NCBI GenBank assembly: GCA_004369045.1
Contig: ML213510.1
Span: 942,736-1,006,735, forward strand
Source: Heliocybe sulcata
Lineage: Eukaryota; Basidiomycota; Agaricomycetes; Gloeophyllales; Gloeophyllaceae
Direction: 5' to 3'
DNA length: 64,000 nucleotides
Shown piece after piece: positions 6,809 through 45,779 of the stretch; the first letter of the stretch is position 1, and each line of letters begins with the position of its first letter. A program made the position numbers and the translations under genes. Under the pieces are notes generated by a model. The model worked only from the letters and a program-made list of their open reading frames with translations. It did not search any database and was not told the DNA's origin.

Positions 6809-6816
6809 TATATAAG
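6809..6816 (+). promoter_or_regulatory. TATA box upstream of zinc-finger gene
   Basis: TATATAAG lies 49 nt before the ATG chosen at 6865. A clear TATA box this close implies transcription starts around 6840, which argues against the in-frame upstream ATG at 6676 and for 6865 (or the next in-frame ATG at 6895). Confidence 0.55.
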
Positions 6817-6864
6817 AATGCATCTGTCCCTCTTAAATTCCAACTCCTCGATACCCTGCCAGTC

Positions 6865-8662: not shown

Positions 8663-10856
8663 TCAGTTGTTCGCATCGATGGCAGCGGTCAGAGGGTCCA
8701 GCGCCGCGAGCTGGCCCCATGAGGTGAAGGACTGCGAAGGCCCTGCCCAGCTAGACGAGTACGTATTGCCGTTCGCCGCAAGCTCGAGAAGCGCGTTGTA
8801 CTATAATTGCAACGAAAACAAACAACAAAGAAGTCGTTAGCGAAAATAAGACAGCAGAAATACGACTAGCACGGACTTGGACATCGATATAGCTCTTGAC
8901 GAGGGTGCGGAGATCGGTGTTCGATTCGCTTCTGGTGTAAACTTCGTGGAGGCCACGGACGAGGACAGCTGCAGTATCGGCCCGATTCCGATACGCGAAG
9001 GACGAGTGGAGCCCCGATATGCAGGGAGGTCGGTAGATGATCAAGGCGTGCAGGGAGATGATCACGATTATGATCAAAGAGATGCACGTTAATTATGGGA
9101 CTACTTCGGAGTGGAGATGCGAAGGAAAGAAGAAAGGACAAGACGCACCCTTGAACCCGACACTGCCATTGTCAGAGTCTGTGCTCACCCCCTCGGTGAT
9201 GACCCCATTGCTGCCCTGCCACGCGGTAGTGTGCGCCGCAGCTGCGACCACATCCACCATGCTGTGAAAAAACCACGTCTCATGAGTCCGTTTCACACAA
9301 CATGCCACACCAAATCTCACAGCGTCCTCCACGTATCATCACCAGTGACATCAGCGAGAACACTCAGGCCCTCTACATACTTGCCGCTATTATAGGTGAA
9401 CAGCCAGTTGCTCGGCGACGTCCTGCAAAGGGCCATCGTGAGCAAACTCCCGTCCCGCGCACCAATTTCGGCGCAACTCACGAGCAGTCGTGGGCGTTGA
9501 CCGTGTCGAGCACGATATCGTCCGCGTTCAGATTGTGCGCGCGGATCCAGGTCGCCGCGGCCGTGGCGGCGTCCCTGTAGTTTGTGTTGCCCGTGGCTTC
9601 CGCCAGATAGGCGCCCAGCCTATTATCGGGGTGATCTTCATGAACTGCAGCGAGCCCAGTGTGCAGGAGGGCACGTACGTCATGAACAATCTAGAGATAT
9701 TACGCCGACGTCAGTCCATTGCGTATGCCGGTTTAATGAAGAGCGCAGATCCTTACCCGGTAGTGATCGAGTTGATGCCCTGGTCATCGCTTGTCGGACG
9801 CTACGAGCGACGAGGACGGAGACGGTTACAATCCGCCTCGACCTTGGGACATAAAATCTATTCCGGTAACTCACCCAGAATACGCCGCCGGCCATAGTAG
9901 CTGCATAAAGAACAAGACATGAGAACGCCGTCCGTATTCTTGCCACACAGCCCGCCCGGGCGCCCGATATTAATCTACGGACCTCCGTTGCACGTCCCTT
10001 CGATGGAGAAGCCCTTCACGGGTGTACTGCCACCCGAAGCCTGCGCCGCGGTGACCTGGCTATTTTCGCGCCCGATGCTCATCTCAGATGGGAAGGGCGA
10101 AGGAGAGGGTGGGGAGATGCGTACTATCCCGAGACGTGGTTCCACGTATCAATAGCGTGCTGCAGGAGGTTGCTGTCCCCATACGCTCTGTAGCCGTAAT
10201 ACGCGGCGGTCGCCCACCATCTGGACGACGTGAAAAATTCAGGTGTCAGACCGTTCGCATGGGTTTCGTAGGGACAACGTACAAGGCATCGTCGTTGTAC
10301 TTCCAGGCGGAATTTCACTGAGATATTACTGACGGCGTTCTCATGCACGTAAACACACACCCTAACCCACGGTCAGTATATGCGACTTCCTTGATAAATG
10401 AGGGGCCTCGACATACTGGTATTGGTCATAGTTCGCGAACTCGCTCCAGCCTGTATTCAGGCCATTCACAACGGCCGCCTGATTGGTGGTGGTCTGCGTA
10501 AAATGGTCCTGGTTCGCCATCACTGACCAGACGTTCCCGGACTGCCACCAGCCGAGACCTGTCATGTATGCACGGGTGAGAAACGAATAAGAGCGGTACA
10601 CTAGGATGGTGAGCGGCTAACCGTTGAACTGAGCGGTAGCCGAGTTAAGCTGGCCTGTCATCTCGTTGATAGCATTTTGCGCGATTGACACTCGATCCGA
10701 GTAGGAGCGACTATTTGTGGGCTCCTGGAGAGCGTCGTATGAGAAGGGAATGCTGGTCAAGATGAGTGCACGTACTCTCCAGCCCGATGGGACACTGAGG
10801 TCCTGCGCCAATGCCAAACCACAAAGACCTAGGAAAAGGATAGAACGGCGCTGCAT
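8663..10856 (-). CDS. Secreted glycoside hydrolase family 76-like protein
   Basis: Read on the minus strand, the gene begins MQRRSILFLGLCGLALAQ, a signal peptide with a cleavage site after ALA. The mature part joins over about ten introns into the basidiomycete GH76 pattern: NGLGWWQSGNVWSVMANQD, ANYDQY, NDDALWWATAAYYGYRAYGD, NHVSGYIGRENSQ, GTCNGATMAGGVFW, SDDQGINSITTG, AYLAEATGNTNYRDAAT, LNADDIVLDTVNAHDCS, FKAVLVRGLHEVYTR and a C-terminal YNALLELAANGN. The paired acidic residues in NDDALWW and SDDQG are candidates for catalysis, since GH76 mannanases use an Asp-Asp pair. Apparent stops in a straight translation all fall inside introns, one of which is 180 nt long (8969-9148). GH76 enzymes act on alpha-1,6-mannan, and fungal relatives (Dfg5/Dcw1) work at the cell wall. 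Whether this one hydrolyses or transfers is open. The gene looks intact. Confidence 0.85.
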
Positions 10857-11511
10857 AGTGCTTAGAACGACGATCAGCTAGAGAAGGAGACGGCTGCAGG
10901 TCAAAGATCTGCTTGTTTATATGGATTCGACGGGCATCCTTGCGCTGAATGATGGCGGCGTCGGCTGCGATCATGTATGGTTAATTGACAACAGCCGCAC
11001 TGATGGGGCAGAAGACGATTGAACGTGCGACACGAGGGTCACACCAGGATGCAGATGAATTGCGAGGTACCGCAGAGGCCGTGAGCTTGATGAGCACTAC
11101 ACCCACCGCGGCCCCATCGTCAGATGGCGGAAGTATCACGAGGGCTATATCCCGAGACCACTGAGAAACCGCGAGACCACGACCCAGCAACGCACAACAG
11201 CGACACATGTGGGCCCAAGGGCATAATTCCGAGTTCGACCATACGATGCCTTTGCCCTGAGAAGCTTTGCAACGTAACCTCTCGACCTTCCGGGTTCCTG
11301 ATACATGGTAGGCGCACGAGTCCGTCCTTGTAAGCAACAAACATAGTATTCCAGCCAGGACCAGTCGAAAGACGCATACATTCATTCGAATCAAGATCAA
11401 GATGAGGTATGACTGTGACGGTATACATTCGCGTGACAAGTCACTTCCTCCGGCCTGCGCTCATCATCTCGCATACGATCTTATACTTGACTAAGGATCA
11501 GCGAAAAATAG
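10857..11511. other. Divergent intergenic region
   Basis: This is the shared upstream region of the GH76 gene (minus) and thymidylate kinase (plus). Minus-strand frames of 78-152 codons overlap each other here (for example 11120-11428), but none resembles a known protein and none joins well to another exon. I treat the region as promoter and leader sequence. Confidence 0.45.
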
Positions 11512-12352
11512 ATGGATCAGACCGGCCAAAGCTCAAACAGAGGCGCATTCATCGTCGTCGAAGGACTCGACCGCTCAGGCAAGAGCTCGCAGGCCGCCCG
11601 CCTCCTCGAGCGCCTGCAAACCGCAAACATACCCGCCAAACTCATGAAGTTCCCTGGTCAGTCGGCCTGCAGGCTCTCCGAAGAACACTAGAGCAAGGAG
11701 TAACGGCATGTCGCACTAGACCGCACGACTGCAATTGGCAAGACGATCGACTCGTACCTGCGCTCCGAGTCCGACCTCGACGACCGCGCCATCCACCTCC
11801 TCTTTTCCGCCAACCGCTGGGAGCTGGCGTACGTCGCTACCATCTCTCTCTCTCTCGCCCTCATGCAACTCCGCGCTTGTCCAATCCTACCTGAGACCTG
11901 AGCTAGTCTGACCGCCCTCCAGGACTTCCATCTCCTCCGCCCTCCACTCCGGGACGACCCTCCTCTGTGACCGGTACGCCTTCTCCGGCATTGCCTTCTC
12001 CGCCGCCAAAGGCCTCCCTTACGACTGGTGCCGCGCCCCCGACATCTCCCTACCCGCGCCCGACCTTACCCTCTTCCTGGACGTCGCGCCCGAGGTCGCC
12101 CGCGAGCGAGGTGGCTATGGCGAGGAGCGCTACGAGAAGGAGGAGATGCAGCGTCAGGTACGCGTGATGTTCCAGAGGCTCGGGGAGGAGACGAGTGGGA
12201 GTGGCGGTGGACGGCAAAGGTGGGTTACGATCGACGCAGGCCAGAGCATACAAGCTGTCGAGGAGGATATATGGAGAGCTGTAGAGCCGCTCGTGCATGG
12301 GGTTGACAACCCCTTAGAGAGATTATGGGAGACGACCGCTGCTCCTTCGTGA
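11512..12352 (+). CDS. CDC8: Thymidylate kinase (dTMP kinase)
   Basis: The protein phosphorylates dTMP to dTDP in dTTP synthesis. Exon 1 contains the P-loop [20 protein letters not shown] (residues about 16-35). An intron splits KFPD from [13 protein letters not shown], and a second follows NRWELA. The dNMP-binding motif [19 protein letters not shown] sits near residue 100, followed by [20 protein letters not shown]. The lid region [16 protein letters not shown] is also present. With both introns removed the product is about 226 aa, normal for eukaryotic TMPK. The ATG at 11512 begins the only frame reaching the P-loop with a sensible short leader. It is convergent with UBC6, 281 nt away. The identification is secure. 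Confidence 0.95.
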
Positions 12353-17875: not shown

Positions 17876-18896
17876 CTATTCACCTTTGCGTCTAATTAGG
17901 CTTATCCCGTCTCGAACCGGTAGCATGACGACTTCGACTCTCGGGTCATTCCTATGAAGGTGATCGATCAGCCGAGTATTCATGACATTGCGACCAAACC
18001 GCTTACCTGACGTCTTCGTTGAAGGCGTGAATGGCCGAGCCAAGATGATAGGACGGATCGGGCGCCCAAGGCGTTCCTTTATACGCCGTATTATCGACGA
18101 CAATGGTTCCTCCAAGCGCAAGGAGCTCGTTGTCAAGAATCTTGTGGTAATACGCGGAATAGCCAGCTTTATCCGCGTCTATGAAAATCTAAAACGATGT
18201 TGAGCGAACGGGCGAGCTCGATATCCCGACATCCTACCATGTCGAAAGTCATGCCTTCAGTTGCCAACTGATCAAGAGATTCACGCGCGTCCCCCACCTT
18301 CACGTTAATCTTTTGGGACACCCCAGCCTCCTCGAAATATGGCCTACTGAAGTCCGCTAAGAAGTCTTCCAGCTCAAGGGTCACTACTCTGTCGACCGCA
18401 GGCAGGAGAGCAAACGAAACAGTGCTAGTCCCTGTAAACATGCCTATCTCCAGTATAGTCTTGGCCTGTGGCATGCAGTCTACTGTCAGATCTATGTAGA
18501 AGGAATTGCCGAAGGAAGGTGACTCACCTTCGCTGTCTTGGCCAGTTGCTGGAGAACTACAGCCTCGTAGGAACCGGAAGTCATTTCGGGAATCAGTTCG
18601 AATTTCGTCTTTCCCTGTTCATGCAGCTGCTTCCAGTCCATCTCGTCACCCGCCTTGATCATCTTGTCTAGGATGGGAGGGTGAGGCGAAGTCATGAGGC
18701 TCATGTACGGATCCAGGCCATTGACGAGACGGGTAGCGTCCTCGAGCAGCTGTCGCGCCTCAGGTGAAAGCGGTGAGTCCGCCAAAGTGATATTGGTGCG
18801 TAGGTCATTGATGACATATGCAAGACGACCAAGGGGCGTGTCGTGAGCTTGGACGAAGCCTTTAGGTATGCTCTCAATGGCGAGCATGGCGTACAC
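17876..18896 (-). CDS. SAM-dependent O-methyltransferase, MysB-like (4-deoxygadusol formation)
   Basis: The protein (about 285 aa) begins MYAMLAIESIPKGFVQAHDT. It contains TPLGRLAYVINDLRTNITLA, LDPYMSLMTSPHPP, SAM motif I ILEIGMFTGTSTVSFALLP (about residues 125-145), the acidic loop VVTLELEDF, IFIDADKAGYSAYYHKIL, GGTIVVDNTAYKG and a C-terminal DPRVEVVMLPVRDGISLIRR. This is the caffeoyl-CoA O-methyltransferase-like family that includes cyanobacterial MysB, which methylates desmethyl-4-deoxygadusol. Three introns join cleanly, including FDM|IFIDADK and DVR|NDPRV. It is transcribed away from the cyclase gene across a shared 1.1 kb region, which supports joint action. Alternative: a methyltransferase for another catechol-like substrate. 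The cyclase and ligase next door make the mycosporine role most likely. Confidence 0.88.
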
Positions 18897-20024
18897 TTGA
18901 AGGCCCGAGAGCAGAACAGAGGACTGAAGGAGATAATTAGAGGGTGCTCAGTAGATGCTTGGCAATAGGTGAGGTCCACTGACTACTTCTTGTCTATCAG
19001 ACGCAACCAAATTTGATTTACTGACTTACGATTCAGGGTGCAGTGTCCGCCTGGCGTTCATTAAGAACTCATACGTGACGTTGCGACTACGACTATGGAT
19101 TGCAAGATGCTCCGGCAGAGCTGTTTACAGATTCAGGGGATCGGATATCCATCGCGATACCCACTGCCGCCGGATAGGTTTTTTATCACTGGCTCTCTTT
19201 AATTTGCCCTTAATGTCTGTCAATCCTAAAGCTTGAAAGACAGTTCCGTTGTCGTTCTCCCCGACGGAAGGTCAAAATGGTTTCTGACGAGGTACCTTGA
19301 ACGTCTTTCTCGGCTGTGGGCTGAAATATACCCATGACCGTCTCCACATCGAACCCTCATGTCCGAGCTTCCGTGGTGCTGTGTCGATCCTTTGGGACCA
19401 TCTTGCTACAGCGGTGTAGGTGCTTTGTACGTCGCCATCTCCTTCACAACCAGCCATGCGTGCTTCTGTACATTCAGGGTCAACGATGATCTCTATTGAT
19501 CCCCTCAATTCACTAGTCAGGAGACAAAATGCCCTTTATACGAATTTCAGATGCTGGACTGTCTCCTATACTACGGCGTCTCTTCGATAATCGTTATGTT
19601 CGGTATGTTTACTGCCGCGGGCATTCGGGCTCGTCGTCCCGCATGGAAGGCCGGAGGAAAGAAATACTCCGGATTAGCATGGCAGTCTCTACAGCGCGCT
19701 GATACCAACGGGGTCGTCGAACGTTCCTGACTCATTAGTGCAACCACTCATCGGAAGGGTGTTTCGTCCTCCTGCTGCGACCTCCACCGCTGTCCGATCT
19801 ACAAATGGCGCCAACCATATGCTCGATTTACCTGGTCATGTGTCCTTCGTCTGCGGCTTTCAGTCAATCTGTTGTCTTTATCAATCCTTGCATGACTTTT
19901 CCACGGTGGTACACCGTCGGTTGATAAAGAGCTGCTGTTCGGCGGTGAAGATCAAGCTCCATCCTGTCGCCCCGAACATCCGTTCTGACACAGGCTTCGT
20001 GCAAGTACCTGATACCCTTTCACT
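18897..20024. promoter_or_regulatory. Divergent promoter region of O-methyltransferase and cyclase genes
   Basis: These 1,128 nt separate two genes that should act in sequence and are read outward. No other coding frame is convincing. A shared regulatory region is inferred from the arrangement; I did not find a clear TATA box or a repeated operator-like motif by eye. Confidence 0.45.
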
Positions 20025-21991
20025 ATGAGCGACTTGAAGGCTACTGTCAACACCACGGAGAATGGCTTCGCCGTCACTGGCAATGAGGAGATCAAGTATT
20101 GTAAGCGCAATAATTGTGCATCGTGTCAGTTTACTGATGGAGTACCTTGCAGCCTTTCAGTTCGTGGACAACATTTTTGACGTGGCCCACGACCATTTGG
20201 CGAAGATATACTCTAACTGGAAGAGGGTACTTCTCGTAACGGACGAGAATGTCAACAGACTTTACTCCGAGCAATGGGCGGCTTACTTCGAGCATCACGG
20301 CATCCCGCTTACGACTTTCGTTATGGCGGGTGGGGAGAAGAACAAGACCATGACGACCATGCTCTCGATAGTGGATGCCATGGACGCGTTTGGACTTGTC
20401 CGGAAGGAGCCCGTCCTGGTGGTCGGAGGTGGCCTCTGCACTGACGTCGCCGGGTACGCCTGTGCGTCTTACAGGCGCAACTCGAACTTCATTCGCGTGC
20501 CCACCACTCTCATTGGGCTGATCGACGCCAGTGTCAGCATTAAAGGTGCTCCTTCAAACTCACCAGCATTTCATGCATCCGAAACTGATATACGAGTGTG
20601 ACAGTTGCTGTCAATCACGGTAATCTCAAGAACCGTAGGTTCCTCCTCGATCATCTATGTTGACCATTCTCTGACTGTCAGTGGCGGTGTACCGTCTGCA
20701 GGTCTCGGAGCCTACCACGCCCCGATGATCACTTTCCTGGATTTCAATATGCTCAAGACCCTTCCGGAGGGCCAGGTTCGGAACGGCTTCGCTGGTAAGT
20801 CGATTGCAATTCGCAGATGTTCGCTCGGTACCGACCATGGTCAATTATCTAGAGTTGATGAAGATCTCGTCTTGCGCTGACAAGAGAATCTGGGACCTCC
20901 TGGTTCAGAACGGGCCGGCCTTGATCGAGACAAGGTTTGGTCGCCTTGACGGCGTCGATCCCAACCTCAAGGCAATAGCGGACGAGATCTGCTGGAGAGG
21001 GATCAAGGTTATGCTTGACGTAAGCGTTACTTACTTATAATCAGTTCAGAGTCTGACTGTCGTGCCTGTTGCTTTAGCTGGAGTCTCCTAATTTACATGA
21101 ACTAGGCCTTGACAGGTGAGAATCACGTATCATCATAACCACGCCGTACCGCATTAGTTCTTACCGTTCTCACAAACCACAGGGTCATTGCATTCGGTCA
21201 CAGCCTTTCCCCGACCCTTGAGCTGGCTCCTGTTGTCCCTCTTCGACATGGTCATGCGGTGAGAGGACCAATCCGTTCTTACTTGGTGTGGAAACTGACC
21301 CCCGCTGACCAGATCAACATCGACATGGCTTTCTTCGCGTAAGAACTCGCCGTCCATCCATTAGCCTTCCCCATATGCTGACGGACTGCCTTTGAAGGAC
21401 GTTCGCCTGGACGCGTGGCTTGCTGACCGAGGCGGAGAGAGATGAATACCACAAGCTCTCGCATTCCGTCGGATTGTCCATGGATCACGAGTTGTTCACC
21501 GAGGAGATGATTGTCAAGGGCACGAACGCTATCCTGTACGTGGAAAGCTCGGTATAAAGAAGGCAAAGATTGACTTACCATATGTTTGTAGGAAGACTCG
21601 CGACAATAAGCAAAGGTTTGCTATCCCGCATCCGTACGGCACCTGCATGTTCATCAACGATGCCTCGTACGACGAGCTCTTCGAGGCCCTGAAAGTTCAC
21701 AAAGAGCTCATCCAGCAGAAGTACGGGAGGGGGGTGGGCCTCGACGTGAGTCCATGCCAGACGCTACCTCACGCAAATAACTTAATCCTTGTTTGTCAGG
21801 CGTTCTGTGACTCAGGAGATCTCGGTATGGATCCCGAGGTGCTGAGGAAGCGTGCACGCATATTGCTCGCTGAGACCAATGGGCTGAATGGCGACGCTCC
21901 CGTCCAAATTGATGTGCATCCCATCAATAAAGCGGCGGAGGCGGGTGTAGGGACGACTGCGGTGGTGGACATCATTGCTGTCGAAGCATAA
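20025..21991 (+). CDS. Sedoheptulose 7-phosphate cyclase, desmethyl-4-deoxygadusol synthase (MysA-like)
   Basis: This dehydroquinate-synthase-fold enzyme (about 430 aa) starts [15 protein letters not shown]. It has the NAD-binding region [33 protein letters not shown] and [21 protein letters not shown]. The likely metal ligands sit in NGFAELMKIS (Glu), [16 protein letters not shown] (His) and [15 protein letters not shown] (His). Later segments include [20 protein letters not shown] and the C-terminal [10 protein letters not shown]. The family converts sedoheptulose 7-phosphate to cyclitols. The paired O-methyltransferase and ATP-grasp genes favour desmethyl-4-deoxygadusol as product over 2-epi-5-epi-valiolone, though the motifs read by eye do not by themselves separate the two. 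About eight introns of 50-90 nt are required and all joints keep frame. No shikimate-pathway AROM domains follow, so this is not the AROM protein. Confidence 0.92.
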
Positions 21992-22377
21992 CGCCGAGTA
22001 CCGTATACCATAACTTCTTGCTCGGCTATCCATATCAGGGAAGTACGCGTTGCCAAGGCTGTCTTGTACATAGATCAATAAAGGGACTTTACCTGGGATA
22101 GAGCGTGACGTCAGCGCAAAGCAAATGACTGGCGATTGTAACGTATTCGAACATGCTTACACGCAATGGAGAAGTTAAGACCAGCGTGCCTCTCTTAACT
22201 CTTGCAGCGTGGAGAGGAAGAGGACAGTACTTCTAGTAAACCTAGACAGTTGCAGAAAGTAGTAGGGTATGGCGAAGGCGTCGAAGTCGAGCATTGGTAC
22301 TAAGATTCGGACAAGAAAGACTTTCATCAAAAGGTGACAACGGTTCGTAGTACGCCAGGTGAAGACACCCAACTCCT
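21992..22377. other. Convergent spacer
   Basis: These 386 nt lie between the 3' ends of the cyclase and the ATP-grasp ligase genes. No gene is seen; it presumably holds both 3' ends. Confidence 0.5.
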
Positions 22378-24112
22378 TCAGCATGCATATACCCTGGCGG
22401 TGCTCGTATTGATCCGACTCCAGCCCTTTCGCTGCCATAGCAGCGTCGCAAGAATCCAAGGGATCTGAACATGTGCAAGGATGAAGAACGGCAACGGGTC
22501 AGAATAGTCAAAGGAAACATCTTTCTCCACACCACAAAGGTGTCGCAGAACAACCGTTAAAGGTCCATCTCCATGGAAGGGAGATAGGGTCGCGTTCGCG
22601 GGGTGCGCTCTATCCTGGCTAGCGGGTGGAGACCGCCTCAGGCGTGGATGAAGGATGGGGAATAACTTAGAGGCGATTGAGTCTGGAATGAGGTTCATGA
22701 ACGACAGTGGCAATTCATGTGAGAGCCAAGACCGAGGCGCGGCATCTGTAGGACGCGTCGGTCCACTGTTGAGACTGAGGTCGCCCGTGTACGCCGAAGC
22801 TAGGAGTGGATTCTCCGAAAGCAGGGCAACGGCTGTATGAGCCCGCTGCGATAGTTCGAAAATCAGTGGAAAACGTGACACGTCCGCAACGAACTCTGCT
22901 TACAGGATTACACTCGATGGGATACAGTCGTCCCTCAGATTCTTCTAGCAGAAAGTCGAAGCTAAAGTGCCCTGTCATTTCTGCCCTTTTGCCAGTCTTG
23001 CCTTGCTCGCGCAGTAACTTGGCCCAGCGCTGGAGGAACTGCACTGTCCATTCCTCGGCTTGTCTCCCTATATCACGCTCGTTCCGCATCGCCTCGGTGA
23101 TGCAGTCAGAGGTCTCTTGGGGACCATCCATTTTGTGCCGCGTAGGAAGGACAGTAGCGGACTTGGCATAGGATTCGAGGTCAAGGTATCGCAAGACCAT
23201 ATCGCTACTGCGGGAGGCAACGAACGCGAGCAGCCTGCCATCACGAACAACGCCATGAGTGCAGTACTCCGGGCCGCCGATATAGCGCTGCAGAACGAAA
23301 GGAATCTTCCTGCTGGGCTGCACCGGTATCTTGGCAAAGTGTGCGATCGTCGCTTCCATTGTTTTCAAGGGGAGAAGGGTCAAATCGCTTCGTCCTGCAT
23401 CGTCGAGGCCGACGCATTTGAGGATGTAAGAATAACCCTTTTTTCGAGTGTCGGGAGAGAAGAGGAAGTCAATCGCCTCTCCGCACGATGTCACGAGCTG
23501 GCTTTGGGGTACTTGGAAGCCGAGCTCGGTGCAGAGAGGCATGAAGCGATCCTTCCAATGCAGGCTGTCGATTAAGTCTGGATGTTGAATGAACGTATCG
23601 CAGTTGTAACCTGCGTTGGAGATCTCCAACGCAGTCTCCGCGTCTTCGACAGTGGCAAATATGCTAGAACAGGGCACCCAAATATCGACGCCTTCGCGTC
23701 CCACAATATCCACAATTGCCTTCTTGTACGCCTCCTTTCCGCCTTTCTTCTCGTCACTGGGCTCAGGCAGAGAATAATATCCATCCGCTGCCCGGGAGAA
23801 TCTTGTAAGAGATACGTGACCCCAACAAGCCTCCTCAGCGATGAGGACACGGTATCCCTGGCGCTTGAAAGCTCGTAGAAGTACGAGGCCTTTGTTCGTG
23901 CGACCGCCAGTGATCAAGACGGTCTTGCGGTCTGCGCGAGAGTCCCGAAGATGAAGAGCAGCTCCGTCAAGCCGAGAGCATAGTAGCGCAATGGCAGTGA
24001 TGGACAGAGATATAGGTGCAATGAGAAGAGAGAGGCAAATAAGCAGAATAGAGGTAACCGTGATCTGAGTGCGCGTAGGATTGTCAATCTTGAGGCGGGC
24101 TGCCGATTTCAT
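22378..24112 (-). CDS. Membrane-anchored ATP-grasp ligase, MysC-like (mycosporine-amino acid synthase)
   Basis: The enzyme should activate 4-deoxygadusol with ATP and join it to an amino acid. From the ATG at 24112 the protein opens MKSAARLKIDNPTRTQ, followed by a strong hydrophobic stretch (ILLICLSLLIAPISLSITAI, about residues 20-40) that looks like a membrane anchor. The catalytic part includes VLITGGRTNKGLVLLRAFKR, GYYSLPEPSDEKKGG, VDIWVPCSSIFATVEDAETA, HWKDRFMPLCTELGFQVP, YILKCVGLDDAGRSDLTLLP, FVLQRYIGGPEYCTHGVV and the metal-binding IECNPRAHTAVALLSENP. The Asn-Pro-Arg is split by a 93-nt intron, the only one needed. A long C-terminal region ends near TARVYAC. About 545 aa. An upstream in-frame ATG at 24262 is possible but would bury the anchor. 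The family call is firm; the amino acid partner cannot be read from the sequence. Confidence 0.9.
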
Positions 24113-24539
24113 TGCGACGATATACAGAGGTCGATATGTGCGGTAGTGAGAGGAGGCGGGATGCAGATGCCGTACTAAGGGATGCCTCAGTATAAGGACA
24201 ATACTTCGCGAGACGCCGTACTGGTCGTTTGAGTCGCAGCGAGGGCTACTAGGGCCATCCATGTGATCCGCAGACGTAAAACTGACGTCGCGAGACTCTC
24301 ACTTAGAGTCAGAAGGATACCCATCGTGAAAGTGATCAGTAGAGCGAAGGAAGGTGGAGGGCATACGGCGACATGATTGCCCTCAAAGCTCAAGAAGCTT
24401 GGATTATCAGATGGCCTGAACATCGCATCTTCCAAAGCGAGGCAAGCCATTGCCTGAATCGCAGAAAAGCAAGATAGGCATGACTAGCATACAGGCCCTT
24501 ATAACTGGAAGCTTTCAGTGACATCCAGCATGATGAACG
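24113..24539. promoter_or_regulatory. Bidirectional promoter of ATP-grasp and A-T-R genes
   Basis: These 427 nt lie between two divergent pathway genes. Two ATGs at 24530 and 24533 start a 24-26 codon upstream frame that overlaps the chosen A-T-R start and ends at a TGA near 24600, so translation of the A-T-R gene may be damped or may begin by leaky scanning. The shared spacing is evidence for co-regulation by position only. Confidence 0.45.
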
Positions 24540-27500
24540 ATGCTCCTCGCAGAAGATCTGTCGTACCTGACTTGCACCGGTGGCCAGGCCAAGCTACTGA
24601 ATGATAAGAACCCGCACGGCTTCGTTTCTTTGAACCAAGTCTTGCAAGAGCGAGCTAGAACACATTCAGATGTGTTACTTGCGGGATTTCCAGAGCGCAA
24701 GGCCCGAGAACACGACCCAGCTAGCAATGGGAGCGACTGGGAGGTGGAAGAGTTCAGTACGTTCCAGCAGACCCGGGACTTCGCTGCGAGACATTTCCTC
24801 ACGCTCGCGTCGGACTCTTTACAGCGTTTGCTTCCTTCCTCCAGGCATCAAATGCAGTTGCCGCTGAATTAGTTCGCGCAGGGACCCTACGCGCCAGGCA
24901 AGTGCAAGATGGATTGCAAACCAGAATTGTTGCCTTGTTGTCGCCAAGTTGTGCCGAGTTTCTGGTCTTTACGTTTGCAGCCATAAGACTCGGATATGGT
25001 GTTTTGCTGATAGCGTGAGTTAATAGCTCGTTTCAGTTCCGTCAGATCCGTGCTATCATCATGATGATTCATTCTGGCCAAGCATCCCGGCAAGCATTAT
25101 CCTAACTTATGATTTATTTAGCCCACAGAATAGTGCGGAAGCTATCCGCCATCTTTGTCTGTCCACGAAATGTGCCCATCTCTTCTGCCATTCCGTGTAC
25201 ATGCAGTTGGGAATCAATGCCTTCCCCGACGCACAAGACGATACTATGTCTGGTAATCTTAACGTCCAAGCCATTTGCATACCACCGCGTGCTATATGGG
25301 AGACCTTTTCTCCCGACCTACCCATTCTTGATCCTGTCTTGAGCCCTTCGGAGGAGAAGGACGCTATTGCATTAGTGTTTCATACCAGTGGATCTACTGG
25401 GATGCCGAAGGTACAACAGCAGTCATTTCTGCTCACAATGACTCATTGGCTCACCTCACTTAGCCCATATACCATACGCATAGTGTATGGACGCAGGGCC
25501 TTCCTTGCCTTCCAGGTGATGCAGCTTTTACCACGACTCCCCTCTATCATGTAAGTATATGCGCGTAATAATGTGTTTTTGTACTAATTTGACCTTGTAG
25601 GGCGGGCTTCCCGATTTCCTACGTGGTATGATGTCTCTGACGCCGCTATATCTCTACCCGTCTCTTCATCCCGTCACTGCGTCGAACGTGGTTAGTGCTG
25701 TTGCAGCATGTCCAGATGTTTGTGCCTTCCTGTCAGTCCCGTACATCCTGAAAATGCTCTCGGAGTCGGACGCTGGCATGAGCATGTTGCAGAGCATGCG
25801 TCTCGTCAGTACCGGTGGTGCCCCTCTTCCCGAAGAGACGGGTGACGAGATGGTGAAGAAAGGAATACGCCTCGTCAGCCGTCTGGGATCAAGTGAATGC
25901 GGGTGTGAGCATCTCATTTTTCCATGCAATAATTCACGAAGTACTGATGCAAAGGGCCTGTTAGTCTTGATGAGCTCCGCACGAGACTATGTGACCGATA
26001 AGTCATGGAGCTGGCTCAGAGACTACAGTCATAGTCTAGGTCTACTCAGATTCGTACCCGCTGGAGAAACGGGGAGCTACGAGTTGATTGTTGACAAAAC
26101 ATTTTCTACCTTGGTATGTCGTGCCTCTTTGTCCTAGAGCGACATCTGACAGACATATATGCGTCAGACTACATCGAATCGACCCGATGGGAGCTTCGCT
26201 ACAGGTGATCTGTATGCCAAGCATCCCACTATACCTCACGCCTGGAGGTACGCGGGAAGAGCGGATGATATCATAGTGATGGTGAGTCCTCTACTTTGTG
26301 TCTGACCGACGGGAGGCTGAATATCAGCAGACTAATGGCAAGAAGACCTCGGCGAGCGTTATCGAGAACAGCCTCAGAGCGTCCCCGATCATCTCTGAAG
26401 CCCTCGTATTCGGCACATCACGCCCTGCCCTGGGGGTCCTCATACTGACAGCGGATGCCAACATTACCCGAGAGCATGTGTTAGCAGTAATACATGCTGT
26501 CAACAGTAGGAGCCCATCGTACGCCCACATCGTGGATGAGATGGGAATCATACTACCCTCGGATGCCACCTTCCCGAAAGCGAGCAAAGGGACGCTCCTC
26601 CGACCGCTGGCGTACCAGCAGTATGCTGAGATTATAGAACAAGCGTACCAAGCTCTGGAGTCGGGTGGTGTAGCAGATCCTCATCTGTCGCATCCAAGCG
26701 GCGAGGCTTTGGTCTCGTATGTGAGAAACGTGGTGCAATCGGCGATTCCCGAATGTGTCAGCTTGTGGGCCGACGACGATGATCTGCTGGTTCTGGGAGT
26801 TACATCAGTCACAGCCATCGGAATACGCAGTAAATTACAAAAGGTATTGTAACTTTAGAATTTGCTGTTGCCCGTCGCTTACCGAAGGAACTCCTGCAGC
26901 TTGTGGATCGTCCACTCCCTTCCAACTTCGTGTACGAGAACCCGTCTGTGAAGAGGTAGTGTTGGTCTGCCGTATTGTCCAATATCAGCCTCTGACAGCA
27001 CGACCTCTGCAGATTGGTCCGAACGATAGAGAGCATTAGGCGAGGTGAAGACGCCAAGCCAAGCGACGATGTCTTCGAAGTAATGCGCGATCTTGTGGCC
27101 AAGTATGGTGCCTTCAATGAGGCCCTCCACCCTCAGCAACCTGTGTCATCCGCAGAGCGTGTGATAGTATGTTAAATCGGTCCTTACCACACACTGTAGG
27201 ACACTTACCCCATCTGACAGGTTCTGAGTGGCGCAACTGGTGCGCTGGGCGCACATATCCTTGCCCGCTTCCTCAGCGATGGCCATTCCGAAGTCGTCCT
27301 GTTGGTCAGAGCCAAAGACGACGTAGAAGCTGAACAACGAGTCATGCGCAGCCTGGAAAGGAGGGGGCTGGGTTCTGTCACTAGCAGACCGGAGTGGGCG
27401 AAGGTGAAATGCCTGGCAGTGCGCTTGGGCGATTCAAATTTAGGGTTGGCACCTGACGTATACGACACTCTAACCGGGAGTGTAACGAACATTGTCCATG

Positions 27501-28599
27501 TAAGCTGCGCATTCTTGAGCCGAGCGGACTCGCTTTACCTGAGTATTTTCAACAGGCTGCTTGGGACGTCAATTTTGTTGCAAACTTTGATAGCTTTGCC
27601 CCCGTTCATCTGGCAGGTAATATCCAGCCTCATGATACGACTATCTATGTATCTAATCCGGGGGCTAATTTGCTAGGTCTACGCGGTCTGATCGACTTGG
27701 CCATTGCCAGCCGGCGGAGGGCTTCCCTTGTATTCTGCTCCTCCACCGCTGCGGTAGTAAATGACTACACCGGACAGCAGCCTATCCCAGAGTCTCTTCC
27801 GCAGTCGGAGAACAGCCCGTCATCGCTTGGCTACTCTCGCTCCAAATGGGTCGCTGAGCACATATGTGCTCGCGCTCACTCTGGTCCTCTCAATGGTAGG
27901 ATTAGCCTGGCTCGCATCGGCCAATTGTGCGGTGATACTCAGCATGGCATCTGGAATGAGGCGGAAGCCTGGCCTCTGCTCATTGCGAGCATGAAGTATA
28001 CGGGCTGTCTTCCGTCGCTGGACGAGGTAGGTCTACGTCTTCGAATATTCCTATCCAGACCAGAGATTAATCATTACACGGTAGCATCCGTCTTGGTTTC
28101 CAGTCGACGCTGCTGCCAAGGTTATATGTGACATCGTGCGCGTTCCAAACGAGCTGGGCACTGTCGCGCCTATTCCTGTCTACCATGTTCTTAACTCGAA
28201 TATGGAGACCTCTTGGGCCGACATACTCCAACATCTGGCAGCAAGTGGTCTCAACTTCGCAACCGTCTCGCCTCAGCAGTGGCTGAGCCAGCTGGAAGAT
28301 GCCTTGTTGAAGGAGGACGACGCCCGCACTCGTGCAATGTTGGAACTTTGGCATACTACAGTAAGTCTTATTCATAAAGTCGTGAAGTAGACATGCTAAT
28401 TGATACATGGCAGTACGCCGATGAGACGAAGAAGCCAAAATCCCAGCCCGTGTACGACACGTACGCGGCTGCTAGCGTATCCAAGACAATGAAAGATCCA
28501 TCCCCTATATCCGCCGATCTTGTTGGAAAGTTTTTGGATTCCTGGAGGAAGACGGGTTTCTTACCGCCTGCCCGTGCTGACGGTGTGGCCAGGAAATGA
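24540..28599 (+). CDS. NRPS-like adenylation-thiolation-reductase (A-T-R) carboxylic acid reductase
   Basis: This is a single-module enzyme of about 1,050 aa built from some fifteen exons. The first intron (24757-24824) restores VEEFTFASFLQASNAVAAEL. Adenylation domain: FVFTFAAIRLGYGV, A3 VFHTSGSTGMPKP, TTPLYHGGLPDFLRGM, VSTGGAPLP, SRLGSSECG, A7 ATGDLYAKHP, and A8 GRADDIIVMTNGKKTSASVI. Thiolation domain: DDDLLVLGVTSVTAIGIRSK, with the phosphopantetheine Ser in GVTS. Reductase domain: Rossmann motif LSGATGALGAHILARFL, SSTAAVVNDYTGQQPIPES and the catalytic YSRSK in SSLGYSRSKWVAEH. Such enzymes load an acid, then release it as an aldehyde or alcohol with NADPH. A position where amino-acid-activating domains carry Asp is here the LYHGG segment, which suggests the acid lacks a free alpha-amine. 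LYS2 is unlikely (longer, different start). The substrate is inferred from neighbours. Confidence 0.88.
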
Positions 28600-28652
28600 A
28601 CGGATCCGGATGCTCTGGGTATATGCGCTTGGTATAGAGTGACAATCCCCTC

Positions 28653-29832
<1,180 letters not shown>

Positions 29833-30776
29833 GGAGGTAGTCGGGTGTGGAAGATGGAGGGACGTGAAGCGGCGCGGTGAACAGTTCCCCTTCCCTTTGA
29901 CGCTTATTCTTGAACGCCTCACGCGCATCTCCTATCTCTGCGCAAGACAGTTCATAGCCAATCCCAATTGTCGATGCATGGGGACGACGCCGTGCCCCCA
30001 AAGGGTCAACGGGGTTGTCTTGATCGAACGGTGGACGGTTGTGCACGGGTTTCCGTGGAACATTCGATTTTCTGTTCGGAAGTCTGCAGTCTGATAAGTT
30101 AGGTCAGAGCGGAAGCATCCGATCGAGTTCTGTCTGTGCATTTACTCGTGCTGTCGCTTGTACGGCCACATGTCCGAGGGAAACGAGCCTGCCAGAGCGG
30201 ATATAGGGACAGCGAAACCTGCAAGATAGACAGCCGAAAGAGGAATACAATCATGCAACCCGTGGTGTTGCATGAGGGCTATCTCACAGTGCCACAGCAG
30301 ATCCCTAAGACCCTGATCTAGACGGAGAAATTATGGACCTCACAGCCGGAGACTTCCCAATTGCGCTACCGCAATGCCAGAGAACGGAACCAGAAGTCCG
30401 ATCATCTTCTTACCAAAGGATAGCGATACCCCTTTGATGGACTCAGCTCCCTTTCTCATGTTCTGGTGTCGTAAAATACCGCCAACTACGTCAAAGCACC
30501 CTTTTCTAACCTTCGCTTGACAATAGTAGTGAGCGAGACATTGTGGAATCAATTAGCGACATTAATGCTGCATTATGACTGCCCGCTCGGACAGAGGAAC
30601 GTACAAAACAAGGTACACAATACAAACGTCTGAAAGACTCTACGAAGGCCTAGAAATAAAACAATACAACGGAACGGGCATTACATTGCTAACCGCGTCC
30701 ACTCACAATCAGGAACTTCCCAGCTTACACATACAATCGGTGCCCGACCCACCCGAAAAGGCCGTGCCTGCCTCGC
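29833..30776. other. Intergenic, no gene seen
   Basis: This is upstream sequence of the aldo-keto reductase gene and the 3' flank of the transporter gene, both minus strand. A 132-codon minus frame extends upstream from the reductase start, but it has no recognisable content. Confidence 0.5.
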
Positions 30777-33069
30777 TCAGAACCCTTCATTCTTCAGCTT
30801 CTCAGGCAGAAACAGTGTCACAATCGCAGAGAGCACCGCAGCTCCGCCGGCGAGGTAAAGTACCCCGTCCACACTCGTCGCCAGCAGCCGTGTTGCTATA
30901 AGCGGGGCTATAATAGATGAGAGTCTCCCCCAGGTGCTCGCGATACCGCAAGCGGAGCCTCGGACGGCGGCAGGGAAGGCTTCGGGAGTGTAGCCATACA
31001 GAATGGCGTTGAACCTGGTACGCCGTTAGCGGACATCACGAGAAGATGGTATAGACGAGACTGGTGACGTACATTGACTGGAAGAAATATTCCATTGCAT
31101 TAAACCCGACGTTTGCCGTCGGAGAGTCCTAGTCCACCAGTTCTCGTCAGGCGACTGCCTTGCCGACGCCAAAGGTCACTCACGATATACACGAAAGCGA
31201 ACAGTGACGCCGCCATTAAACTAGCCGAAATGGTCATCGACCACGTCTTGCCTAGCGTCTTGGTCTGAATAACAAACGCACCCAGCACGACAGCCAAGAT
31301 TCCGGGTGCGTAGATAATTATGCTGTACAGCGCTTTAGTTAACTGCCAGAAAGTCTGTTTCGATCGCCGTACTAGTTTCGATAGGTAATATCCACCGACT
31401 GCCCGGCAGCCACGCCCTTCCTCCTCAAAATGTCCGGTAAGAACCCGCCAGCTATACCAACGTCAATACATTGATCGCCGGCGAATGGGGAGCAAGAGCA
31501 CTCACCTATAGAGAAAGCGGCATAATCAAAAATGAAAGTGGCCCAAATCGCAAGCGACAAGCGAGCCATATACGGCGTCTCGAAGAACACCTTGAACTGA
31601 CTCGCCATAGCGGTCAATGTCTTCGGCTCGCCCGACCTGATAGAGGACTCGGAAATATCATCGCCTAGTACATTGTCAGGCTCCTGGCCCTCGCAAAACT
31701 TCGAAGACGGGAAACCGACCATCAAGCGCATATAGGTCTTCAACCGTTAGCGAACAAGGCTGGCGGTTCACCCTGGCAATGTGGTGGATTACGTCGACGG
31801 CTTCCTGCTCGCGACCTTGGAGAAGAAGAAATTTAGGGCTTTCCTAGTACATGCATATAACCGGGTCCAATCAGTGTCTTATCATAATATATGCGCATTA
31901 ATACGCTCACCTGGAAGTTGAAAACCACAAATCTGAGGAAGAAACAAAACAACGTGATGGCGCCAATCGTATTTCTGGCAAACACGTCGGATGAGCTGGA
32001 CATCTGAAACGTCCTCCAGTCACTCACGTAGTAAGTCGCCACCCAAGGTTATCCCTCCTGGCGCAGCACTGTTCGCCTGGAGTAGTGATACTGCAGGACT
32101 TCAATCCAGGTGCGCAACTGTTAGGTGGAATGAATCCCCATGCTACGACGGAGCATATAACAACCCCCAGCGGTTGAAAGAGCGACAAGGCAGCCAGGAG
32201 AAACTTGTGGCCCTGAAGAGATCTATTTCAACAAAGCTAACGGGGAGGACTGAGGATGAACCAACATGCGGGAGGAATTCGTGCACGATGCTCGCATCGG
32301 TTGGTATGTTGCCGCCGATCCCGAAGCCTGTAAAGACGGAGAGGAAACATAGCCATGGCCAACTGGGCGCTGACCCTAAGAGGAGCCCCCAGAAGCCGGT
32401 GAGGAGTACGGTGAGGTTGAAAGCCCACTTGCGGCCGAACTGGTCAGAATAAGCTTTAGCCTAGACACTGGCAAAACCCTCAAAGTCACCCACCATGTCA
32501 CCGATGATACCCCAGCTGAACGCGCCTATGGTGAGACCGACGTTGAACGCCGTAAGAAGCGTGCCAAACTGCGAGTCTGAGAATAGATTCGCGTGAGATC
32601 GCTGGAAGCTCGCTGGACTGGGACTACTGACCTGGAATCCCGAATTCTTGCTGTGCGGAGCTGACGATGAGCCCGAAGGCTTGCGCCCACATTAAATCGA
32701 GTGCGTAGCCGTACCCGCATAACTGCGAAGTCGAGTAAGCGCCGGCCTTCCTCTCCATAGGAGCTGCATCCGAAAGCCTACAAAGAATATATACCACTAA
32801 TGACAAGTGTCAGTACTTTTGCTGCATTGCTGTGATCTCCTGAAGGGACCTCCGGCACTGACAGAATATCTTCCCATCCCCATCGTATCAATAGTGGTTG
32901 TTAATAGAAGAGTCTTCTTGTCTATTGTAGACAGTCTCTTGAACCCAGACTGAGTAACATACGCGTGTCCGCCGTTCTCCTGATCATTCGCGGACGGAGG
33001 TAAAAGCGGTTGGAGGGCAGGGTCGTCGCCGGCGACTTTCTTATCGTCGTCCTCTGATGTACGGCTCAT
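30777..33069 (-). CDS. MFS transporter, SV2/sugar-transporter-like
   Basis: The N-terminus MSRTSEDDDKKVAGDDPALQ is cytosolic and acidic. Over about ten introns the frame gives repeated hydrophobic segments, including LGTLLTAFNVGLTIGAFSWG, GFGIGGNIPTDASIVHEFLP, SLFQPLGVVICSVVAWGFIP with a Cys-rich loop and RRDNLGWR, GAITLFCFFLRFVVFNFQ, and the C-terminal LYGYTPEAFPAAVRGSACGI with STWGRLSSIIAPLI and LAGGAAVLSAIVTLFLPEKL. The PEAFPAAVRG motif and the loop after TM5 fit the SV2-like and sugar-type MFS branch in fungi. Twelve membrane spans are expected. Being next to the pathway genes, it may export or compartmentalise the product, or import a precursor; the direction cannot be told. The family is secure and the substrate unknown. 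Confidence 0.88.
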
Positions 33070-33411
33070 CGTTGGCAAGCACGTCGGGCAAATGCACAAG
33101 ATCCGTGAGGAGCCGTGGTGACTGTAGACTGCAGTCGGGCGAAGCGTGTCACTCTGTGGCTATCGGTACGCGCAAGAAGGGGATCAGGAGAGCTGTAGAA
33201 AGCAGAGCCGATGTCGCCAGCAACGTTACCCATCGCGGTGATACGCATCGGCTTCATTCGTCATCGCACGAGCCATCTGGCATTTGACTGCCTTGGTGTC
33301 AAAAGGGGAAGTGTCATATCCTAAAGCGTTTCCGCGTGTGACGTTCATCTAATCGGTGCCTCAAATTCGGCTTGAATTTGATATTTATATTTATGGTAAA
33401 TTAAGTATTAT

Positions 33412-33495
33412 GGACCGATGGTGTAGTTGGTTATCACGTCTGTCTAACACCTGAAGGTGCACAGACGGTCCTCAGTTCAAGTCTGGGTCGGTTCA
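33412..33495 (+). tRNA. tRNA-Val (anticodon AAC) with a 10-nt intron
   Basis: The acceptor stem GGACCGA (33412-33418) pairs with TCGGTTC (33488-33494), with one G-U pair and discriminator A at 33495. The D arm starts at 33421. The anticodon stem TCTGT (33439-33443) pairs with ACAGA (33461-33465). The anticodon AAC lies at 33446-33448, and the intron CCTGAAGGTG (33450-33459) sits one base 3' of the anticodon in the usual place. The T arm is CTCAG TTCAAGT CTGGG. The anticodon, after deamination to inosine, would read Val codons GTT, GTC and GTA. No 3' CCA is encoded, as expected in eukaryotes. Confidence 0.94.
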
Positions 33496-33500
33496 TTTTT
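33496..33500 (+). terminator. RNA polymerase III terminator of tRNA-Val
   Basis: A run of five T directly follows the discriminator base, the standard Pol III stop signal. Confidence 0.85.
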
Positions 33501-41707: not shown

Positions 41708-43734
41708 TCAATTCCTCCATCTATGGATTCAGTCAGTAAAGCCACCCACGTCCGCCAAACCTACTCACATTTTGACAGTTTTATCCCGACCTCCGCTGAC
41801 AACCTTGTCCGCCACAAAGTCCACGCAATACACCTCGTCCGTATGGCCGGGAAGATCACTCTTGAGCTTATACGTCTTCAGATCCCAGATCTACCCATGC
41901 CATACCCATTAACGCCATTCCACAGATAACCAAATGCAAGTTGATCGCCCACCTTCAACGTCGTGTCCTTACTCGCACTAACCAGCATCCTCGAATCCGC
42001 ACTCCACGCAAGCCTGTAGACAGCACCTACATGCCCCCTCAACGTCGCGACGTACTTTCCGGTCCTTCCTTCCCATATCCTGATCGCATTGTCCCAGCCC
42101 GCGCTCGCAGCCCACCGCCCGTCCGGAGAGAACGCGACGTGCGAGATTTGCCGCTGGTGCCCGGTGAGCCGGGTGATGGGTTTAGTCGACGGGGGAGCGG
42201 AGTCAGAGGCGGAGGGGAAGAGGGACCACAGGAAGAGGGTGTGGTCGTCTGAGCCCGAGATGAGGAGCTCGGGGCTTGAGGCGAGGAGGGCGGTGTATCG
42301 ATCTAGCGCGAGTTTTTGGGCTGGAGGGAAAGTGTCCGTCAGCGGGAGCACTGGAGTCGTCGAGGGGTATTACCTTCTTCGTCAGACGCGGGTTTTTTGC
42401 CTTTGTGATCATAGGGGCCCGTTCGTAGTACGAAGTCCGTGTTCAGAGTGAGCGTGGTCACCCAGTGCGCGTGGTCCTTCAGGGTGTACAGTGGCTTGCC
42501 CTGTTCAAATTTACATCAGCGTCAGTCTGGTTTCAAGCAATCCCTCTGGGGCTTACCTGGTCCGCATCCCAGACTCTGACAGTCCGATCACTCGAGGCAG
42601 TATACAAGACGCCCTTCCCGCCCATCCCTCCTCCGCCCCAGCGCACGACGTTGACGGAGGCCGAGTGCCCGCCTAGTGTATATTCTAGTCGGCGTGTAGA
42701 TGTGTTCCAGACGCGTACTGTGCCGTCTTTTGAAGAGGACGCTAGGCGTGGTGATGAAGCGTTGCTGAGAGTGTGCTTAGTTGAATCTTCAAGACAACAA
42801 GGACGATGCACGGCGTACATATGGATGGGCTCCCAAGCGAGCGATGTCACCCATTTTGTGTGTCCCTTGAGGGCATCGCCTATAGGTTTACCAGTCTTGG
42901 GATCCCATAAACGGACCTACAGTCAACTTGTTCATTTAGCTCTATGAGCGGAGTCAGTGGAAAATACGCACATGCCCATCATGCCCACCCGTGGCAAGCT
43001 TCCTTTCCATCGCCTCCCATTCAACGCACAAGACCCATCCTTTGTGTCCTGATAAGGTATGCGATGGTGTTTCGGTGAAGAGGTCCCAGAGACGCGCGGT
43101 GCAGTCGCCTGAGCCGGTTGCTAGAAGATTACCAGTTGGGGAGAATGAAGCGCACAGGATTGGGGAGGCATGACCTAGACACGAGATACATTGGTGCTTG
43201 AGTTGAGCTATGGCATGTAGACGAGTCGCGGCATACCTGAAAGCGTGGACGAACAACGGGTAGCGGGTCGCACTTTGAATACGGCTTGGGGCGAGCATCG
43301 TATTACGAAGACGTCTTCTGGAGTGAAGACTTTCGAAGGGTGCGACAGCACATCATCCTCGATAGACTTCGTGATGACCACTCGCGTGGGTGCTCCGGGA
43401 GTAGCGGCGTCTGCAGGGAGCTCGATCGCGAAAGAGAACGGTACGGGGTCCTCATCCTGTGAGAGACAGCTGGCGTCAATAAGATAGGTGTCTCTCAAGG
43501 CATAGATTCTGAACGCACCTTGACCGACAGTTTATTCACCAATCCCTCTAGAGCTTCTCTTGAAACATTTGCAGGCAAGTTCACCGCAGGAGCGAGAGGC
43601 GACCCATCGTCCTCAGAGACGAATTGGACGACCACGTTCGGCGTCGATCTCGGTGATTCTGGTGCAGGTTCTGGTACTCCGTGATAGACTTTCTGGCGTT
43701 TGGGAGGAGGCAGGAGGACAGACATAGTGGTCAA
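41708..43734 (-). CDS. RSA4: Ribosome assembly WD40 protein RSA4/Notchless
   Basis: The start MTTMSVLLPPPKRQKVY leads into an NLE ubiquitin-like domain (NVVVQFVSEDDGSPLAPAVN, VSREALEGLVNKLSVKDEDP, VPFSFAIEL). A seven- or eight-bladed WD40 propeller follows: GHASPILCASFSPTGNLLAT, SGHKGWVLCVEWEAMERKLA, GHTKWVTSLAWEPIH, GGHSASVNVVRWGGGGMG, SSPELLISGSDDHTLFLWSL, LTGHQRQISHVAFSPDGRWA, LRGHVGAVYRLAWSADSRML and DEVYCVDFVADKVVSGGRDK. A last intron joins TVK to IWRN and the stop at 41708, restoring the canonical end. Rsa4 binds Rea1/Mdn1 through its ubiquitin-like domain to drive late 60S assembly in the nucleus. About 530 aa, normal length. The start could also be the Met at 43725. Confidence 0.94.
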
Positions 43735-45492: not shown

Positions 45493-45779
45493 CGGGCGTC
45501 TAGGGTTCCATTTCCAGCTCCTCCTTGCTTGCAATTATTGTTGGAAGTACCTGTAATAATATGTACGATATATAACTTGCTTCGTTTATCCACCACGAAG
45601 CTCACGAGGACGCGCTCTTGCTAGCTCCTGACTCACCCTGACTCTACTGGAGCACGTCATGAACAGCTTCGTCCACGTAGGATTGGCACCGGATAGTACT
45701 GCTATGGCCATTGACACGCACGTATCTCTCGTATGGCATATATTTATTAGTCGAAGTGTACGTTTGTATTGGCTGTATC

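What the first reader, a model, noticed from the sequence alone, without database searches (positions are those of the whole stretch)
17876..33069. Mycosporine-type gene cluster with an added carboxyl-reduction module
Six adjacent genes combine the three core enzymes of mycosporine synthesis (cyclase, O-methyltransferase, ATP-grasp ligase) with an A-T-R carboxylic acid reductase, an aldo-keto reductase and an MFS transporter. Seen: complete genes with catalytic motifs and shared or very close borders. Known: MysA, MysB and MysC make 4-deoxygadusol and join it to an amino acid; fungi contain mycosporine amino alcohols such as mycosporine-glutaminol. Inference: the A-T-R enzyme reduces the carboxyl of a mycosporine-amino acid to the aldehyde or alcohol and the aldo-keto reductase completes it. 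This would explain the enzymatic origin of the amino-alcohol side chain.
Basis: partly seen in the sequence, partly recalled or inferred. Interest (0 to 1): 0.92.

Follow-up and report, generated by a model that had tools for sequence, protein, structure and literature searches.

The report
Fungal sunscreen cluster with reductase module
What looks like a fungal genome carries the three genes that make mycosporine sunscreens directly beside a carboxylic-acid-reductase-like enzyme and a second reductase, which may add the alcohol side chain known from fungal mycosporines, though a yeast makes such a compound without them.

Summary
The first three are relatives of the bacterial mycosporine operon: 44 of 45 bacterial DDGS loci carry both an OMT and an ATP-grasp relative; the 45th is cut off inside DDGS. 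The reading is only partly supported. The A-T-R lacks the Asp of amino-acid A domains, which fits a mycosporine-amino acid, or any acid without a free alpha-amine, better than a free amino acid. Against it: in Phaffia, DDGS+OMT+ATP-grasp alone give mycosporine-glutaminol in baker's yeast (PMC10057719), so a clustered A-T-R is not the general source of the amino alcohol. The A-T-R also has Lys455 where Neurospora CAR needs Glu433. No fungal genome collection was at hand, so conservation of the module could not be tested. Verdict: a six-gene variant of a known cluster kind, with a testable but unproven tailoring step.

The parts
17876..18887 (-). O-methyltransferase (OMT/MysB-like), 4 exons: 18887-18528, 18465-18238, 18188-18007, 17951-17876; 281 aa
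   Evidence: PF01596 E 3.3e-46; relative beside DDGS in 44 of 45 bacterial loci
20025..21991 (+). desmethyl-4-deoxygadusol synthase (DDGS/MysA-like sugar phosphate cyclase), 11 exons, 460 aa
   Evidence: PF01761/PF24621; best PDB match 5tpr_A E 6.9e-128, next 4p53_A E 1.1e-69; 52% identity to 5tpr; carries a stretch like the DDGS signature printed for Phaffia in PMC10057719
22378..24112 (-). ATP-grasp ligase (MysC-like), 2 exons 24112-22904 and 22845-22378, 558 aa, N-terminal helix 14-55
   Evidence: 34-41% to 30 bacterial third genes of the cluster; fold; no Pfam hit of its own
24113..24539 (.). 427-bp divergent intergenic region between the ATP-grasp ligase and A-T-R genes, possible shared promoter
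   Evidence: gene borders; promoter function is inference
24540..28599 (+). A-T-R carboxylate-reductase-like enzyme (NRPS-like), 15 exons, 1079 aa; codons counted by hand from the exon table: His261 25548-25550, Lys455 26340-26342, carrier Ser610 26805-26807, Tyr862 27832-27834
   Evidence: PF00501, PF23562, PF00550, PF07993; R domain best PDB match 8aep_A E 3e-34; key residues
28653..29832 (-). aldo-keto reductase, 7 exons, 278 aa, tetrad Asp49, Tyr54, Lys79, His111 (tetrad pattern recalled)
   Evidence: PF00248 E 5.4e-40; nearest solved YvgN and 2,5-diketogluconate reductases; Asp49, Lys79, His111; Tyr54 read from the sequence, the script marked Tyr53 before it
30777..33069 (-). MFS transporter, 12 exons, 532 aa
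   Evidence: PF07690 E 2.4e-26; PDB relatives are phosphate, SLC22 organic ion and SV2 transporters

Best explanation
This is a mycosporine gene cluster with a reductive tailoring module. Most likely route: DDGS cyclises sedoheptulose 7-phosphate, OMT methylates the product to 4-deoxygadusol, and the ATP-grasp ligase joins an amino acid to give a mycosporine-amino acid. The A domain of the A-T-R enzyme activates the free carboxyl of that product, loads it on its carrier Ser610, and the R domain releases it with NADPH as the aldehyde. The AKR, or the R domain itself, takes it to the alcohol, and the MFS protein moves the product. Shown: the genes, their open frames, their families and most catalytic residues. 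From established knowledge: the chemistry of the three core enzymes and of carboxylate reductases. Inferred: the substrate of the A-T-R, the role of the AKR and the cargo of the transporter. The confidence is for the whole route; the core alone (a mycosporine cluster) I put at about 0.93.
For: Core enzymes match the bacterial operon gene for gene. The A-T-R has the P-loop TSGSTGMPK, His261, TGD, GRADD, a KGT at A10, carrier Ser610, R-domain Ser831/832, Tyr862 and Lys866, matching NcCAR His237, Lys522/Thr524, Ser595, Ser815, Tyr844 and Lys848 (PMC5826065, PMC10168641; passages). The A4 stretch PLYHGGL has no Asp where amino-acid A domains do: HMMER pairs PLYHG with PLHFD of an L-proline ligase, and all 7 cyanobacterial NRPS-like A domains found in the fetched loci read FDVSVWE. 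The ring-bound nitrogen of a mycosporine-amino acid is a vinylogous amide (recalled chemistry), so no Asp is expected. The gene sits between the ligase and the AKR with 427- and 53-bp gaps. The R domain of a fungal CAR can carry reduction on to the alcohol (PMC10168641).
Against: The three Phaffia core genes alone give mycosporine-glutaminol in S. cerevisiae (PMC10057719). Lys455 stands where NcCAR needs Glu433, whose Ala variant is inactive; the 3 bacterial CARs in my loci, which are close kin, have Glu. The fetched bacterial loci lack the module: AKR 0 of 45, A-T-R-like hits 5 of 45 at 22-24% identity. No fungal relatives could be checked. A missing Asp only says that no free alpha-amine is needed; it does not name the substrate, and an L-proline ligase is still the third-best PDB match of the A domain.
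Confidence: 0.4

Rival explanations
1. The A-T-R reduces a free amino acid (serine, glutamine or glutamate) to the amino aldehyde, the AKR makes the amino alcohol, and the ATP-grasp ligase joins that amino alcohol to 4-deoxygadusol.
For: Phaffia authors state that the ATP-grasp enzyme incorporates glutaminol (PMC10057719). Some fungal CARs reduce Ala/Val/Ser, Tyr, Phe or Leu/Ile (clade I in PMC9605436, passages). An L-proline ligase is the third-best PDB match of the A domain.
Against: The A domain lacks the Asp of alpha-amino-acid A domains; its two best PDB matches are a 2,3-dihydroxybenzoate-AMP ligase and a benzoate-CoA ligase. The R domain is closest to 8aep_A, which I take to be NcCAR, a reducer of non-amino acids; few fungal R domains are likely to be in the PDB, so this is weak.
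Confidence: 0.2
2. The A-T-R, AKR and transporter serve another product or deal with an aromatic or fatty acid, and lie beside the mycosporine genes by chance or only for shared regulation.
For: Phlebia radiata carries nine predicted adenylate-forming reductases, several next to other metabolic genes (PMC6540522, passages). The three core genes suffice for a mycosporine in the Phaffia work. AKR and MFS are common families.
Against: The A-T-R lies inside a compact block, head to head with the ligase over 427 bp and tail to tail with the AKR over 53 bp. The 7 of 10 flanking ORFs that matched Pfam show no second pathway; the flanks were only partly scanned.
Confidence: 0.27
3. The A-T-R is catalytically weakened or has a changed A-domain role because of Lys455, and the cluster makes a mycosporine-amino acid with a free carboxyl.
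For: Glu433 of NcCAR is essential (PMC5826065); here it is Lys.
Against: A 1079-aa frame over 15 exons with GT-AG at each of its 14 introns and the other NcCAR-essential residues kept is not the picture of a dead gene. The position is Tyr, Leu or Phe in the other adenylating enzymes aligned and Gln or Asn in two.
Confidence: 0.1

Closest known systems
Phaffia rhodozyma MYC cluster (DDGS-OMT-ATPG), PMC10057719
   Same: The same three core enzymes, DDGS in opposite orientation to OMT and ATPG, multi-exon genes; a similar DDGS signature stretch
   Different: The described 7873-bp cluster has only the three core genes, yet mycosporine-glutaminol is made; here three further genes are added, and the ATP-grasp gene has 2 exons against 6
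Bacterial MAA operons (cyanobacteria, actinomycetes), loci L001-L045
   Same: Related DDGS, OMT and ATP-grasp in 44 of 45 loci
   Different: Seven cyanobacterial loci add an NRPS-like gene with an FDVSVWE A domain (its A-T-TE layout is recalled); L022 adds a D-Ala-D-Ala-ligase-like and a TauD gene; no AKR hit in any of the 45 loci
Fungal carboxylate reductases / adenylate-forming reductases (NcCAR type)
   Same: A-T-R layout, AMP-binding_C_3, PF07993 R domain, 4 of the 5 residues reported as essential in NcCAR
   Different: Lys455 in place of Glu433; encoded in a mycosporine cluster; substrate unknown
NRPS-like 'mycosporine-like' clusters of Hypoxylaceae, PMC8403587
   Same: An ascomycete survey already groups NRPS-like clusters with mycosporine-like biosynthesis
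   Different: The passages read do not give the domain layout of that NRPS-like gene or an AKR; the compounds are called yet unidentified

Membership tests
Mycosporine/MAA core cluster (MysA-MysB-MysC) | DDGS-type sugar phosphate cyclase rather than DHQS or EEVS | tested here: met
   5tpr_A 430 bits against 238 for 4p53_A and 119 or less for the chains named DHQS or AROM apart from 5tpr. PDB names 5tpr '3-dehydroquinate synthase' and 4p53 'Cyclase'; that they are the Anabaena DDGS and an EEVS is recalled. HGHA as in 5tpr, not HGEA as in 4p53
Mycosporine/MAA core cluster (MysA-MysB-MysC) | adjacent OMT and ATP-grasp relatives | tested here: met
   both hit genes beside bacterial DDGS in 44 of 45 loci; fold
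Mycosporine/MAA core cluster (MysA-MysB-MysC) | makes a UV-absorbing mycosporine | not testable with these tools
   needs LC-MS or heterologous expression
Fungal carboxylate reductase (A-T-R) | A, T and reductase domains in one protein | tested here: met
   PF00501, PF23562, PF00550, PF07993
Fungal carboxylate reductase (A-T-R) | residues essential in NcCAR: His237, Ser595, Tyr844, Lys848 | tested here: met
   His261, Ser610, Tyr862, Lys866 (literature); matched by motif, Tyr and Lys also by the alignment
Fungal carboxylate reductase (A-T-R) | residue essential in NcCAR: Glu433 | tested here: not met
   Lys455
Fungal carboxylate reductase (A-T-R) | reduces a carboxylic acid to an aldehyde | not testable with these tools
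   needs enzyme assay; with Glu433 absent I call it CAR-like, not a proven CAR
L-aminoadipate reductase (Lys2) | full-length match to TIGR03443 | tested here: not met
   116.6 bits against cut-off 1030.1; best stretch covers residues 581-1072, T and R part
Alpha-amino-acid-activating A domain | Asp at the PheA 235 position (rule recalled) | tested here: not met
   Gly262 by HMMER pairing with an L-proline ligase; the MAFFT alignment places gaps differently, so one residue of ambiguity
Mycosporine amino-alcohol pathway module | A-T-R and AKR stay with DDGS across fungi | not tested
   no fungal genome collection at hand

The most novel reading that the evidence does not exclude
Some fungi make amino-alcohol mycosporines by reducing the finished mycosporine-amino acid with a dedicated carboxylate reductase, in parallel to a Phaffia-type route in which the ligase takes the amino alcohol. 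Lys455 would be part of an A-domain pocket adapted to a polar, highly hydroxylated carboxylate.
Probability: 0.3. Interest if true: 0.72.

Novelty: new variant of a known kind. Interest (0 to 1): 0.5.

Why it matters
Mycosporines with amino-alcohol side chains are known from fungi and lichens (mycosporine-glutaminol and -glutamicol in Dermatocarpon, mycosporine serinol in Lichina; PMC6471344 passages). The parts of PMC10057719 that I read say the ligase adds glutaminol but not where glutaminol comes from. A cluster with its own carboxylate-reductase-like enzyme makes that question testable with six genes in one host, and could supply an enzyme for polar, sugar-like acids. If the module is unrelated, the case warns against reading clusters by adjacency.

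Tried and rejected
Lys2 identity of the A-T-R: rejected. DHQS identity of the cyclase: rejected by score. My first idea that His261 sits at the PheA Asp235 position (note): corrected, since HMMER places Gly262 there and His261 matches the CAR histidine. A bacterial parallel: a CAR lies about 3 kb from the MAA genes in three Rhodococcoides loci (L018, L022, L024), but in L022, the one examined, an OYE-type gene and a TetR gene on the other strand and a HAD gene lie between, so I take it as coincidence; the hits in L032 and L033 cover the R part only and were not followed. Viral contigs: one single-protein scan gave no relative. Rfam over 15000-36000 reached no gathering score. The bacterial scan used two short patterns and is not exhaustive. 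The automatic models were re-spliced by hand with homology in mind, so they are not independent of it; the pattern TGATGALG failed because the sequence reads SGATGALG. Papers: PMC10057719 abstract, passages and sections 2.1 and 2.3; PMC8403587, PMC9713403, PMC6540522, PMC5103461, PMC11888242, PMC6471344, PMC9605436, PMC10168641, PMC5826065, PMC8709101, PMC10422843, PMC9394291, PMC11433233 and PMC5201246 in passages only; PMC7036892 in a search listing only.
Full report
What is there. The stretch 17876..33069 holds six genes in the order OMT(-), DDGS(+), ATP-grasp(-), A-T-R(+), AKR(-), MFS(-). Automatic models were re-spliced by hand into six uninterrupted proteins with 45 introns, all GT-AG, 44 to 140 nt long; the two other frames of each spliced coding sequence hold 4 to 46 stops. 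Gaps between genes are 1137, 386, 427, 53 and 944 bp. No genome is held for the window; I take it as fungal from its many short introns and its gene content. Of ten flanking ORFs scanned, seven matched Pfam: XPG_N, MKT1_N, thymidylate kinase, a below-cut-off NTF2-type match, WD40, pirin and a below-cut-off PARG-type match; none of these looks like part of this pathway. The flanking DNA was only partly scanned.

The core. DDGS matches 5tpr_A far better than the DHQS chains or 4p53_A and is 52% identical to it over the stretch aligned; that 5tpr is the Anabaena mycosporine cyclase and 4p53 an EEVS is recalled, as the PDB names are '3-dehydroquinate synthase' and 'Cyclase'. A genome scan found 45 bacterial DDGS loci at 51-56% identity. 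In 44 of the 45 both the OMT and the ATP-grasp proteins of the window hit genes beside DDGS; the one miss, L043, is a 5-kb contig that ends inside DDGS. The ATP-grasp protein has no Pfam match, but 2 of 3 bacterial relatives scanned do above cut-off, and a model of its first exon, built on 31 rows, resembles ATP-grasp enzymes, the best match being an L-amino acid ligase, at TM about 0.46. So this is a mycosporine core; Phaffia has the same three genes with proven function (PMC10057719).

The added module. The A-T-R protein is 1079 aa with A, T and R domains. Its R domain is closest in the PDB to 8aep_A, which I take to be the Neurospora CAR reductase domain of PMC10168641; no call links the two. 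Key residues reported for NcCAR in PMC5826065 and PMC10168641 were looked up: His261, Ser610, Ser831/832, Tyr862 and Lys866 are present; Glu433 is replaced by Lys455. It is not Lys2. The A4 stretch lacks the Asp typical of alpha-amino-acid A domains: all seven cyanobacterial NRPS-like A domains found in my loci have FDVSVWE there, and an L-proline ligase of the PDB aligns PLHFD with PLYHG. The meaning of that Asp (Stachelhaus position 235) and the identity of the cyanobacterial genes as the serine-adding enzyme are recalled. The AKR keeps its tetrad and resembles YvgN and 2,5-diketogluconate reductases. The MFS protein resembles phosphate, SLC22 and SV2 transporters, so its cargo is open.

What it most likely does. 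With the amine bound into the ring, a mycosporine-amino acid has a free carboxyl and no free alpha-amine, which suits this A domain. Reduction to aldehyde by the A-T-R and to alcohol by the AKR would yield a mycosporine amino alcohol. I give this whole route 0.4. A free-amino-acid route gets 0.2, a separate function 0.27, and a weakened enzyme 0.1.

What speaks against. The strongest contrary result is published: three Phaffia genes without an A-T-R gave mycosporine-glutaminol in S. cerevisiae, judged in that section by HPLC co-migration; host reductases could have helped. Second, Lys455 (above). Third, adjacency in one genome is weak evidence: Phlebia radiata has nine such reductases (PMC6540522). 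The fetched bacterial loci lack the module: AKR 0 of 45, MFS 1 of 45, A-T-R-like 5 of 45 at 22-24% identity, of which three are CAR-like genes in related Rhodococcoides and two cover the R part only.

Novelty. In searches of the open-access library for mycosporine with carboxylic acid reductase, NRPS-like, ATP-grasp, amino alcohol, antiSMASH and adenylate-forming, no listing or passage that I saw describes an A-T-R plus AKR in a fungal mycosporine cluster. One search listed only 40 of 72 papers. PMC8403587 already mentions NRPS-like 'mycosporine-like' clusters in Hypoxylaceae. PMC7036892, the one paper with both mycosporine and adenylate-forming, was seen only as a listing. Kalb 2014 on fungal adenylate-forming reductases is not held, and Brandenburger 2018 was not looked up under its right identifier (one search used a wrong one). 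I therefore rate it a new variant of a known kind, interest 0.5.

Noticed in passing
window 26340-26342 (A-T-R codon 455): Lys codon AAG at the position of the essential Glu433 of Neurospora CAR; the motif reads NGKK where fungal CARs have Gly-Glu-Lys (PMC5826065).
   Followed up: partly
window 24112-22904 (ATP-grasp residues 14-55): A long N-terminal helix rich in hydrophobic residues precedes the ATP-grasp core, which may anchor the ligase to a membrane.
   Followed up: partly
window 33411-33496: A tRNA-like gene with an unreadable anticodon by ARAGORN, perhaps an intron-bearing tRNA, lies about 340 bp beyond the start of the MFS gene.
   Followed up: no
L018, L022, L024 about 3500-7150: A bacterial carboxylic acid reductase gene lies about 3 kb upstream of the MAA operon in three Rhodococcoides genomes; in L022 an OYE-type gene, a TetR gene and a HAD gene lie between.
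   Followed up: partly
window 3732-12349 and 41881-46229: MKT1 and thymidylate kinase ORFs to the left and WD40, pirin and a weak PARG-type ORF to the right frame the cluster, apparently ordinary genes.
   Followed up: partly
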